Shown: in pieces, positions 8,962 to 12,684 of the stretch
Layout of the letters: every line of letters starts with the position of its first letter
How positions within the stretch are numbered: the first letter of the stretch is position 1
The notes under the pieces: model-generated
Databases searched by the model: none
Seen by the model: the letters and a program-made list of their open reading frames with translations, nothing else
What the model was told of the DNA's origin: nothing
Source: Actinomycetota bacterium
GTDB taxonomy: Bacteria > Actinomycetota > Actinomycetes > Streptosporangiales > Streptosporangiaceae
Reading direction: 5' to 3'
Length of the DNA stretch: 23,853 nt
NCBI GenBank assembly: GCA_003168295.1
Contig: PMST01000321.1
Coordinates: 16,949-40,801 of the forward strand
Translations under genes and position numbers: made by a program

Positions 8962-10542
8962 CTAGGAAGTGAGATCGGCCATCACGCCGGCCAGGCTTTC
9001 GTCATCGGCCGGAACCCCGGCCTCGGGGCGGCCGAGCCCGTTGAGTACGACGAACCGTGTGCCGCCCCGGTACTTCTTGTCCCGCCGCCACGCCTCGCGC
9101 AGCCTCTCCAGGTCGAAGCGGCCCGCCACAGGCAACCCCAGACCGCTCAGCAGCTGGCGGTGCAGATCCACGAGGTCGGCGGGAATCCGGCCCTGCCGGC
9201 GGGCCAGCAGGGCGGCGGCCATCATCCCCACCGCCGTGGCCTCCCCGTCGTCGACCATGTCCGGGCCGCTGACCTGCTCGATAGCGTGGCCGAAGGTATG
9301 CCCGTAGTTCAGGTGCAGACGATCGCCCCGCTCACGTTCGTCACGGCCCACGATGTCCGCCTTGACCCGTACGCTGCAGGCGACCATCTCGGTGAGCATG
9401 TCCACGTCACCGTTCACCAGCTCGGTCGCGTGGTCACTGAGCAGCGGCACCAGGGCGCCGCCACTGATCAGCGCGTGCTTGACGGTCTCGGCGAGGCCGG
9501 CCCGGTACTCTCGTGACCGCTGCCCCGACGCGAGCGCGACGTCGGTGACCACCACGACAGGCTGGTGGACGGTGCCGACCAGGTTGCGCCCCTGCGGCAG
9601 GTTGAGCGAGGCCTTGCCGCCCACGGCCGAGTCCGCCTGCGCGGCGAGCGTCGTCGGCACCAGCGCCAGCGGCATGCCCCGGTTGTAGGTGCTCGCCACG
9701 AACCCGGCGATGTCGCAGACAACCTCACCGCCGACGCCCACGATCAGGTCGTCCTTGTGCACGGCCAGGTCGGCGAGTTCCCCGGCCACCTGTGCCACCG
9801 TGGCGAGGTCCTTGGCGCTCTGGCGGTCCGGCACCTCGATCCGGTGCACCCGAAGGTCCCGTCGGCGAAGCGCGCCCGTCACCGCGACCACCGCCGGGTC
9901 GTCGCTGGCACTGGCCAGCAGCACGGCGGTCCTGGCGTAGGGAAGGGCCGGAAGGAGCCCGTCTACCTCGGCCAGCAACCCCTGGCCCACGTGCACGTTG
10001 TAGCTGCCGCCCGTGCACGACACGAGGATGGTCGATGTTCCGGGCGGGACGGCAGGCACGCGTGCGAGCCGGGCGATGACATCGGCGCTGACGGCCTCGG
10101 GACGGCGGCCGTCGGTAGCCACCGTCAACGTGGCCACGGTGTCGTAGAGCGACAGCCTGTGCTGGTAGAGGTCCTCGAGGCCGGGCCGGCTGAGCATCGG
10201 CCGGTACTCGTCGCCCGCCACCCGCAGCATCGCCTCCTCGTAGCTCACCTGGAGGTAGATGACCTGGGCGGACTTGAGCCCCGCGATAGTATCCGGATGT
10301 CCCGCCGCACCGCCGCCGAGGGCGAGCACGGCCTCAGATCCGTCGACGAGCTCGCAGATGACGCGGCTCTCCAGCTCACGGAACGCGGGCTCGCCGTTCT
10401 CGGCGAAGAACTGCCTGATCGAGCCTCCGGTCCGCTGCTCGATGACCAGGTCGCTGTCCAGGAACGGCAGCCCCAGGCGCTCGGCGAGCAGGTGCCCCAC
10501 GGTGGTCTTGCCCGCCCCCATGAAGCCGACGAGCACGATCAC
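8962..10542 (-). CDS. aroKB: Fused shikimate kinase / 3-dehydroquinate synthase (AroK-AroB)
   Basis: A 526-aa bifunctional protein. Residues 1-163 are shikimate kinase: Walker A GAGKTTVG (9-16), the shikimate-binding DSD (29-31), FRELE with R55, LALGGGA (73-79), lid YRPML (113-117) and HRLSLYD. Residues 170-526 are dehydroquinate synthase-like: GGEVVCD (271-277), VPTTLAAQADSAVGGK (295-310), LAETVK (350-355) and LNYGHTFGHAIE (411-422). The zinc ligands E352 and H415 are present, but the third (HGE in the family) is D432 in DDGEATAVGM. GRN replaces GKN (318-320) and GGE-C replaces GGG-G, so activity of this half is less certain. The start is GTG at 10542 in a GTGA overlap with aroQ. It is the last gene of the aro operon and duplicates two activities already encoded in it. 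Such fusions are known, for example in Thermotoga. Confidence 0.9.
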   Translation of the reverse strand: MIVLVGFMGAGKTTVGHLLAERLGLPFLDSDLVIEQRTGGSIRQFFAENGEPAFRELESRVICELVDGSEAVLALGGGAAGHPDTIAGLKSAQVIYLQVSYEEAMLRVAGDEYRPMLSRPGLEDLYQHRLSLYDTVATLTVATDGRRPEAVSADVIARLARVPAVPPGTSTILVSCTGGSYNVHVGQGLLAEVDGLLPALPYARTAVLLASASDDPAVVAVTGALRRRDLRVHRIEVPDRQSAKDLATVAQVAGELADLAVHKDDLIVGVGGEVVCDIAGFVASTYNRGMPLALVPTTLAAQADSAVGGKASLNLPQGRNLVGTVHQPVVVVTDVALASGQRSREYRAGLAETVKHALISGGALVPLLSDHATELVNGDVDMLTEMVACSVRVKADIVGRDERERGDRLHLNYGHTFGHAIEQVSGPDMVDDGEATAVGMMAAALLARRQGRIPADLVDLHRQLLSGLGLPVAGRFDLERLREAWRRDKKYRGGTRFVVLNGLGRPEAGVPADDESLAGVMADLTS

Positions 10543-11039
10543 GGCGCGGTGTCCCCTGGCTCGGGTTCCAACTCGGGTCCGGGAGAGCGCGCGGGCTCGG
10601 CTTCGGCCGCCAGCTCGGCGATCGCCTGCAGCGCCAGCTGGTAGGAGACCAGGCCGAACCCGGTCACCGTCCCGTCCGCCACCCCGGCCACCACCGAGGT
10701 CTGCCGGAACCCCTCACGGGCCGCCGGGTTGGAAAGGTGGACCTCCACCAGCGGGGCGGTCCGCATGGCCAGGGCGTCCCGCAGCGCGTAGGAGTAGTGC
10801 GTGAACGCCGCGGGGTTGAGCACCACCGGTATCCGGGCGTCGGCGGCTTCGTGTACCCAGCTGATCATCTCGCGCTCGTCGTCGGTCTGCCGGACCTCCA
10901 CGCTCAGGCCGAGCTTGCGGCCGGTCGAGCGGCACAGTTCGGCCAGGTCGTCGAACGACGCCGAGCCGTAGACCTCCGGCTCCCTGATGCCGAGCCTGCC
11001 GAGGTTCGGGCCATTGAGCACGAGCACCTGCTTTATCAC
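10539..11039 (-). CDS. aroQ: Type II 3-dehydroquinate dehydratase
   Basis: A 166-aa enzyme for shikimate pathway step 3, 3-dehydroquinate to 3-dehydroshikimate. Type II signatures: VLNGPNLGRLG (7-17), REPEVYG with the catalytic Tyr, the flexible loop RQTDDEREMISW, LNPAAFTHYSYALRDAL with the catalytic His, VEVHLSNPAAREGFR and the SVVAG segment. About the last 18 residues (ARSPGPELEPEPGDTAP) are an extra Pro/Glu-rich tail. The start is GTG at 11039 in a GTGA overlap with the aroB stop, and its TGA overlaps the start of the fusion gene, so it is coupled on both sides. The NAAxxH-type motif reads NPAAFTH instead of the more usual NPGAYTH, a mild variation. Confidence 0.93.
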   Translation of the reverse strand: MIKQVLVLNGPNLGRLGIREPEVYGSASFDDLAELCRSTGRKLGLSVEVRQTDDEREMISWVHEAADARIPVVLNPAAFTHYSYALRDALAMRTAPLVEVHLSNPAAREGFRQTSVVAGVADGTVTGFGLVSYQLALQAIAELAAEAEPARSPGPELEPEPGDTAP

Positions 11040-12121: not shown

Positions 12122-12684
12122 CGCGGATCTCCGCCCGGCTGCCTGCGGGTGATGCCCTCGGCTATCTGGGCCGCGATCTCGTCCGCGAGTTCGGTAGGGT
12201 CCAGGTCATCGGTTTCCACCGTGACCGCGGCGAGGCGCTGGTACAGCCGGGCGCGCTCGTCCAGCATCGCGCGCAGCCGGCCGCGGGGGTTGCCAGGCAC
12301 CACGACGCGTGGCCGGTCAAGCCCGACCCGCCGGGCGACCGTGCCGAAGGCAGCGGCCAGGTAGACCACGGGCAGGCCCTCGAGCAGGTGCTGAACCCCA
12401 TCGTCGAGCACGGCACCGCTGCCGAGGGCGAGGACCCCGCCGTGCTCGCGAAGCGTGCTGTTCTCGCCCAGCGCGCTAGCGGCCACCGCGCGCTCGAGAT
12501 CGCGGAAGTACTCCTCGCCGTCCTCGACGAAGATGTCACCGACTGGCTTGCCCGCGACGGTCCCGACGTCCGCGTCGGTGTCCCGGAACTCCACCCCGAG
12601 GCGGGCCGCGACCAGCGGTCCCACGACCGACTTGCCCGCGCCGGGCGGGCCGATCAGCACCACCAGAGGTCCCGCCGCGGTCAA
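12118..12684 (-). CDS. aroK: Shikimate kinase (stand-alone)
   Basis: About 188 aa, slightly longer than typical AroK. It phosphorylates shikimate at the 3-hydroxyl using ATP. Visible are Walker A GPPGAGKSVVG, DTDADV for shikimate binding, EEYFRDLE, LALGSGAVL (usually GGGAV), a lid region RVGLDRPRVVVPGNPRGRLRAML (shown here only as its key RPRVV and NPRGRL parts) and ERARLYQRLA. I place the start at TTG 12684, which overlaps the aroC TGA as TTGA and lies just before LTAAGPLVVLIG. No in-frame ATG is close, and the frame open further upstream is only the shadow of aroC. The start remains the least certain in this operon; an internal GTG at the PLVVLIG segment is the alternative. Confidence 0.88.
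   Translation of the reverse strand: MTAAGPLVVLIGPPGAGKSVVGPLVAARLGVEFRDTDADVGTVAGKPVGDIFVEDGEEYFRDLERAVAASALGENSTLREHGGVLALGSGAVLDDGVQHLLEGLPVVYLAAAFGTVARRVGLDRPRVVVPGNPRGRLRAMLDERARLYQRLAAVTVETDDLDPTELADEIAAQIAEGITRRQPGGDPR

What the first reader, a model, noticed from the sequence alone, without database searches (positions are those of the whole stretch)
8962..12684. Shikimate kinase and dehydroquinate synthase each encoded twice in one operon, once as a fusion
Stand-alone aroK and aroB are followed, after aroQ, by a gene encoding an AroK domain fused to an AroB-like domain. AroKB fusions are known as the sole copy in some bacteria, and separate genes are the norm in actinomycetes. Having both sets in one coupled operon is unusual. 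It could mean increased dosage, a channelled second enzyme for a dedicated product, or divergence to a related cyclase such as aminoDHQ or a valiolone-type synthase.
Basis: partly seen in the sequence, partly recalled or inferred. Interest (0 to 1): 0.75.

Follow-up and report, generated by a model that had tools for sequence, protein, structure and literature searches.

The report
Shikimate kinase with a rewired partner
Beside its normal aromatic-amino-acid enzymes this soil actinomycete keeps a fused copy whose kinase half looks intact but whose second half has lost conserved metal and cofactor residues while keeping the substrate pocket, so it is probably a sensor or a new enzyme rather than the spare it is annotated as.

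Summary
In detail: aroC-aroK-aroB-aroQ-aroKB lie on the minus strand with 4-nt overlaps. The fusion is not a second ordinary DHQ synthase. Of 44 columns at least 97% invariant in 134 canonical DHQ synthases, its subclade (84 rows) keeps 39 and changes five, four of them in at least 82 of 84 rows: third glycine of the GGG loop to Glu, Lys of GKN to Arg, a zinc-ligand His to Asp, a Glu to Gln. The kinase half keeps all 19 near-invariant columns. The fusions form one clade (100/100) beside single-copy AroKB with canonical residues. All 18 fusion genomes with detected chorismate synthase have a second DHQS, canonical at all 22 checked positions in 17; in 12 of the 18 the fusion holds the only detected shikimate kinase. 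It is rare: 1 of 394 class genomes, 2 of 345 in a Streptosporangiales-like order. Best reading: a working kinase carrying a remodelled, probably redox-dead DHQS domain, perhaps a metabolite sensor. Ligand and regulation are inferred. A new non-redox lyase is not excluded; EEVS or DOI synthase is not supported.

The parts
12681..13859 (-). aroC, chorismate synthase
   Evidence: NCBIfam AroC over cut-off; Pfam Chorismate_synt
12118..12684 (-). aroK, stand-alone shikimate kinase; TTG start overlapping the aroC stop
   Evidence: Pfam SKI; junctions; GSG in place of GGG and RV in place of RP, as in 3 other stand-alone AroK rows (L152, L153, L130)
11036..12121 (-). aroB, stand-alone canonical 3-dehydroquinate synthase
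   Evidence: NCBIfam aroB over cut-off; all 22 catalogued active-site positions as in 96 of 96 stand-alone AroB
10539..11039 (-). aroQ, type II 3-dehydroquinate dehydratase
   Evidence: NCBIfam and Pfam
8962..10542 (-). fusion: shikimate kinase + remodelled DHQS-like domain (526 aa)
   Evidence: AF2 model mean pLDDT 91.3
10057..10542 (-). shikimate-kinase half, residues 1-162
   Evidence: all 19 columns that are at least 93% invariant in 113 canonical SK rows are retained in the window fusion, and in at least 131 of 133 rows counted as this family
8965..10029 (-). DHQS-like half, residues 172-526
   Evidence: 39 of 44 near-invariant DHQS columns retained by the subclade; fold like 3qbe, TM 0.93 on target length
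9820..9822 (-). Q241 in place of the invariant Glu of PDGExxK
   Evidence: 83 of 84 Q in the window subclade, 134 of 134 E in canonical DHQS
9724..9726 (-). E273 in place of the third Gly of the GGG nucleotide loop
   Evidence: 83 of 84 E in the subclade; 133 E and 4 D in all 137 rows of the clade, G in 134 of 134 canonical
9586..9588 (-). R319 in place of the Lys of GKN
   Evidence: 83 of 84 R in the subclade
9247..9249 (-). D432 in place of the zinc-ligand His (C. albicans Aro1 H280)
   Evidence: 82 of 84 D in the subclade; alignment to C. albicans Aro1; ligand role from PMC9074039 (passages)

Best explanation
The gene encodes a working shikimate kinase joined to a DHQ-synthase domain that no longer performs the NAD- and metal-dependent DHQS reaction. 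Shown by sequence: the metal-ligand His, the third Gly of the nucleotide loop and the Lys of GKN are replaced, while the catalogued substrate-pocket positions are fully conserved in the subclade and the domain is under purifying selection. Inferred: a bifunctional AroKB came to coexist with a separate AroB; the fused DHQS half then lost NAD and metal function but kept binding a pathway metabolite (DAHP or DHQ are the leading candidates) and now tunes the attached kinase, or docks on AroB, as a pseudoenzyme domain. In the window organism, which also has aroK, the protein would be a second, regulated kinase in the same operon.
For: Third Gly of GGG is E or D in 137 of 137 rows of the clade and G in 134 of 134 canonical rows. 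The changed His lies opposite H280 of C. albicans Aro1 (alignment), a reported zinc ligand; the H268K/H280K double mutant is reported inactive (PMC9074039, passages). Catalogued substrate-pocket positions (recalled names R130, D146, K152, N162, K250, R264, N268, K356) are 84 of 84 in the window subclade. One clade, 100/100, joined at 100/98 to two single-copy AroKB that are canonical at all 22 positions. 18 of 20 genomes with the fusion have a second DHQS; in the other two no chorismate synthase was found either, so they are probably incomplete there. In 14 of those 20 the fusion holds the only SK at E <= 1e-15. dN and dS of the new half 0.198 and 0.679, of aroB 0.220 and 0.611, for one pair of genomes. 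Kinase residues conserved.
Against: Nothing shows that NAD or metal binding is lost; Asp or Gln can bind metal, and the other metal-site residues (recalled names E194, H271, H275) are 84 of 84 in the subclade. Full conservation of the substrate pocket would also fit a working enzyme. In subclade A the His is kept (11 of 11), and in subclade Dg (6 rows) the His region is decayed, so one mechanism may not fit the whole clade. The NAD-loop role of GGG is recalled, not tested. The model's site geometry was not inspected. No ligand or allosteric effect was tested.
Confidence: 0.6

Rival explanations
1. A re-tooled enzyme: the domain binds a different metal or no redox cofactor and catalyses a partial, non-redox reaction (phosphate elimination or aldol ring closure) on a related sugar phosphate, feeding an unknown product.
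For: E352, H415 and all catalogued substrate residues are 84 of 84; the substitutions are uniform within subclades, which looks like a selected new site.
Against: In the two nearest cases with gene order (window, G1097) the gene sits in the plain aro operon (G1097 on a 7.9 kb contig). The ten neighbours scanned beside off-operon copies showed no biosynthetic cluster, a small sample.
Confidence: 0.2
2. Structural role only: the DHQS fold is kept as a dimerisation scaffold for the kinase or as a docking partner for AroB.
For: Known DHQS domains are dimers (PMC9074039, passages); a DHQS-like fold is predicted with high confidence; in six relatives the metal site is decayed but the domain is kept. 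PMC3666897 (title and start of abstract in the listing) reports a structural role for a domain that lost metal-coordinating residues in another enzyme.
Against: A scaffold would not need every catalogued pocket residue at 84 of 84.
Confidence: 0.17
3. Still an ordinary DHQ synthase that tolerates the changes; the operon simply has extra dosage.
For: Fold and 18 of the 22 catalogued positions are canonical in the window fusion.
Against: The other four positions are canonical in 96 of 96 stand-alone DHQS; all 18 fusion genomes with detected chorismate synthase keep a second DHQS.
Confidence: 0.08
4. A decaying duplicate without function.
For: Six relatives show decay around the metal-ligand position. 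The one named isolate found, Microbacterium elymi, has the gene split over two frames, but its ordinary aroB is split in the same way, so sequence errors are likely there.
Against: dN/dS of about 0.29 for the DHQS-like half in the one pair tested; 84 rows with near-uniform residues; in 14 of 20 genomes it holds the only detected kinase.
Confidence: 0.03

Closest known systems
Bifunctional AroKB (shikimate kinase/3-dehydroquinate synthase; NCBIfam NF010627, NF010556)
   Same: Same domain order; the nearest canonical relatives L005 and L006 are single-copy AroKB in an aroC-aroKB-aroQ arrangement.
   Different: In L005 and L006 it is the only DHQS found and canonical at all 22 checked positions; here a separate AroB is present, the nucleotide-loop Gly, the GKN Lys, the metal His and a Glu are replaced, and the NCBIfam cut-offs are missed.
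3-dehydroquinate synthase AroB (TIGR01357; PDB 3qbe, 1dqs)
   Same: Predicted fold (TM 0.93 on target length to 3qbe) and 39 of 44 near-invariant columns.
   Different: Five near-invariant positions replaced; TIGR01357 cut-off missed (278 against 305).
Candida albicans Aro1, whose fused DHQase domain is naturally inactive (PMC9074039)
   Same: A fused shikimate-pathway protein in which one domain lost its activity while a separate enzyme can supply the step (abstract and passages).
   Different: There the dead domain is DHQase in a fungal five-domain protein; here it is the DHQS half of a bacterial two-domain fusion, and inactivity is predicted, not measured.
[quoted passage not shown]
   Same: Same superfamily and fold.
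   Different: 107 and 82 bits against 187 for the best DHQS; the PDB titles of 2gru and 4p53 state bound NAD+ and metal, whereas here the nucleotide and metal sites are the changed parts.

Membership tests
Bifunctional AroKB | SK domain followed by DHQS domain in one chain | tested here: met
Bifunctional AroKB | score over a curated NCBIfam cut-off (565 or 560 bits) | tested here: not met
   298.3 and 229.6 bits
Bifunctional AroKB | canonical metal-ligand His, GGG loop and GKN Lys in the second half | tested here: not met
   D432, E273, R319
Bifunctional AroKB | sole DHQS of the genome (the usual state, recalled; seen here for G005 and G006) | tested here: not met
   separate canonical aroB at 11036-12121
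3-dehydroquinate synthase (activity) | NAD-dependent conversion of DAHP to DHQ | not testable with these tools
   needs an assay
Shikimate kinase | conserved Walker A, DxD, FR, GGG, lid Arg-Pro and C-terminal Arg positions (names recalled) | tested here: met
   all 19 near-invariant columns retained in the fusion
EEVS / DOI synthase | closer to these than to DHQS | tested here: not met
   bit scores against PDB chains; none was in the trees
aminoDHQ synthase | closer to it than to DHQS | not tested
   no such sequence was at hand

The most novel reading that the evidence does not exclude
A conserved bacterial family of pseudo-DHQ synthases: an AroKB fusion in which the DHQS half became a non-redox metabolite-binding module (probably for DAHP or DHQ) that gates the attached shikimate kinase, giving a feed-forward control point inside the shikimate pathway; in several lineages this is the cell's only detected shikimate kinase.
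Probability: 0.35. Interest if true: 0.75.

Novelty: new variant of a known kind. Interest (0 to 1): 0.6.

Why it matters
Source names call these proteins bifunctional shikimate kinase/3-dehydroquinate synthase, which is probably wrong for half of the protein. If the reading holds, an essential pathway enzyme has become a sensor or a new catalyst by a few exact substitutions while keeping its substrate pocket, and the joined kinase gives a direct read-out to test that. Genomes with both this fusion and AroB may be mis-scored in pathway models.

Tried and rejected
Extra dosage and an EEVS or DOI synthase reading were considered and not supported. Neighbours of off-operon copies gave no shared pathway: P5CR-like, glyoxalase and LytB-like in G843; MFS, cupin-HTH and AlkZ-like in G746; thiolase in G004; a periplasmic binding protein in M. 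elymi; two of the ten proteins had no family. A reciprocal-degeneration idea (stand-alone AroK with GSG and RV being the impaired kinase) was dropped because G1094, whose best match (3e-115, one stop inside) is not at the level of this fusion, shows the same AroK features.

Paper searches for an earlier report found none in what was listed: 20 of 70 listed; 0 papers; 15 of 31 listed; 1 paper, not opened; 1 paper, not opened; 12 of 50 listed; 10 of 402 listed. Only openly licensed papers are held, so absence is weak evidence. PMC3018139, PMC4426668 and PMC7144000 were searched by terms only; none gave a report of this fusion or a residue table.

Limits of counts. The listed homologues are the best 120 of 4731 matches (7996 candidates scored), so subclade W (the window and 83 listed proteins) is biased to near relatives. 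One search dropped hits covering under 250 profile positions and identical domains (343 hits to 271 domains). Canonical fused rows were picked by having both the His and the Lys, and rows of the clade by lacking at least one, so these two positions are partly by construction; the 96 stand-alone rows and the GGG change are not. A, Dg, Q and W were split by locus id and by the residue at the His position, so the Gln count of Q is by construction. G114 is Ser in 14 of the 134 canonical rows. The first tree used 102 of 271 rows, thinned by identity; the second 76 of those 102. In the kinase check one fusion row (L152_1_869) was left among the 113 canonical rows. Active-site numbers are recalled A. 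nidulans numbers; the label G116 may be off by one. Microbacterium elymi (G007) is in no alignment because both its fusion and its aroB are split over frames.
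Full report
What is there. On the minus strand the window holds aroC (13859-12681), aroK (12684-12118), aroB (12121-11036), aroQ (11039-10539) and a 526-residue fusion (10542-8962). Each start overlaps the previous stop by 4 nt. The fusion misses the curated cut-offs for AroKB and AroB while the stand-alone AroB passes. Upstream lies an SseB-domain gene. Downstream come two convergent genes with PMP-like repeat matches, a glycosyltransferase and a mannosyltransferase-like gene, then genes for a luciferase-like monooxygenase, an M24 peptidase and elongation factor P.

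Homologues. A protein search gave 4731 matches; the best 120 are listed, at 92% to 55% identity. The source names that give an organism are Streptosporangiaceae MAGs and one Trebonia MAG. The source names given are of the kind shikimate kinase/3-dehydroquinate synthase.

Residues. I aligned 271 distinct DHQS domains from the fetched loci, the listed proteins and the window: 96 stand-alone, 175 fused. At all 22 catalogued positions the 96 stand-alone domains are invariant; 38 fused ones have the canonical His and Lys. Taking these 134 as canonical, 44 columns are at least 97% invariant. In the window's subclade W (84 rows) 39 keep the canonical residue as the majority: 38 of them in at least 80 of 84 rows, one Thr in 70 of 84. 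Five change: the Glu of PDGExxK to Gln (83 of 84), an Arg to Lys (73 of 84), the third Gly of GGG to Glu (83 of 84), the Lys of GKN to Arg (83 of 84), and the His before the conserved Gly to Asp (82 of 84). In subclade Q (36 rows) the His is Gln, and the Gly and Lys changes are 36 of 36. In subclade A (11 rows) the His is kept, but a nucleotide-loop Asp is Tyr in 11 of 11 and the Lys is Gln, Ser or Gly. In subclade Dg (6 rows) the His position is decayed. The third Gly is Glu or Asp in 137 of 137 rows of the clade and Gly in 134 of 134 canonical rows; this position was not used to define the groups.

What the changed residues do. In the phmmer alignment to C. albicans Aro1 the window's D432 stands opposite H280. 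PMC9074039 (passages) reports H264, H268 and H280 as zinc ligands and an inactive H268K/H280K mutant. That the GGG loop binds the NAD pyrophosphate, and the A. nidulans residue numbers, are recalled. The catalogued substrate-pocket residues are 84 of 84. This looks like remodelling, not general decay.

Kinase half. Nineteen columns at least 93% invariant in 113 canonical shikimate-kinase rows are all retained in the window fusion and in at least 131 of 133 rows counted as this family.

Origin. On a tree of 102 DHQS domains without the four trait columns, the 35 remodelled rows are one clade (SH-aLRT 99), next to the single-copy AroKB of L005 and L006 (97). A more careful tree of 76 rows gives 100/100 and 100/98. 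L005 and L006 are canonical at all 22 positions. This fits an active AroKB ancestor.

Genomic bookkeeping. I examined 22 genomes chosen for holding the fusion or its nearest canonical relatives. Two (G005, G006) have one SK and one DHQS, both in a canonical AroKB. Of the other 20, 14 have one SK at E <= 1e-15, in the fusion, and 18 have two DHQS. The remaining two (G413, G431) show no second full DHQS, but no chorismate synthase was found in them either, and G413 has a partial DHQS match on another contig. Chorismate synthase was found in the other 13 genomes and seen in the loci of G001, G002, G003, G004 and G007. So all 18 fusion genomes with detected chorismate synthase have a second DHQS; in 17 it is canonical at all 22 positions, and in the 18th, M. 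elymi (G007), it is split over two frames but shows the GKN and HG motifs. In 12 of these 18 the fusion is the only detected SK. Completeness values are not shown by the tool, and an unrelated kinase type would be missed, so absence is not proof.

Gene order. G1097 matches the window (aroC-aroK-aroB-aroQ-fusion). G002 has aroC-fusion-aroB-aroQ. G577, G502, G590 and G538 have fusion-aroB, with aroC elsewhere. In G001 and G439 aroB lies about 5 kb beyond the fusion. In G003, G004, G406, G429, G432, G433, G437, G746 and G843 the fusion and aroB are on different contigs. In M. elymi they are far apart on one chromosome.

Rarity. At E <= 1e-125: 1 of 394 genomes of the class of G002; eleven further genomes there match the whole profile at 1e-96 to 1e-121, seven of them in one open frame, so ordinary AroKB fusions exist in the class, and four with a stop between the parts. 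In the order of G002 7 of 396, of which G452 is canonical by motif; in the family of G001 9 of 42; in the order of G251 4 of 345, of which two are orthologous and two have a stop inside. Within the family of G843, 2 of 150 at E < 1e-270; among 41 relatives only G843 itself.

Selection. Between the window and G1097, dN and dS are 0.198 and 0.679 for the DHQS-like half, 0.262 and 0.686 for the SK half, 0.220 and 0.611 for aroB, 0.149 and 0.681 for aroC. Identity of the DHQS-like half (72%) is like that of aroB (71%). This is one pair, but a functionless passenger would not be expected to behave so.

Structure. AlphaFold2 on 82 sequences gives mean pLDDT 91.3 and pTM 0.89. The best PDB matches are DHQ synthases (3qbe, TM 0.93 on target length), with DOI synthase and ValA lower in the list. 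The fold is predicted intact; coordinates of the site were not inspected.

Mechanism. Best supported: working kinase plus a DHQS domain that probably no longer runs the redox cycle. The step from a retained pocket to ligand sensing is inference. A selected new non-redox chemistry, or a scaffold, remain live. PMC9074039 gives a fungal precedent for a dead domain in a fused shikimate enzyme whose step a separate enzyme can supply.

Verdict. I found no earlier report in the listings.

Noticed in passing
window 6584-7717 and 7872-8867 (+): Two tandem, similar genes with GGAIYN-type repeats (Pfam Chlam_PMP, the first just at the cut-off), convergent with the aro operon.
   Followed up: no
window 12118-12684 (-); L152, L153, L130: Stand-alone AroK here has GSG for the GGG motif and RV for the RP motif, in 4 of 113 rows counted as canonical.
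   Followed up: partly
L177 7371-9193 and L178 5133-7940: Microbacterium elymi carries a copy of the fusion split over two overlapping frames, near aroQ and a periplasmic-binding-protein gene; its ordinary aroB is also split, so sequence errors are likely.
   Followed up: partly
window 858-1937 and 279-836 (-): M24 peptidase and elongation factor P genes, which from recall often follow the aro operon in actinomycetes, here lie about 7 kb beyond it.
   Followed up: no
window 16676-17683, 20018-20836, 20866-22110: AllH-like, SAM methyltransferase (PF04672) and XdhC-like genes; the ORF at 15176-16459 has no family match.
   Followed up: no
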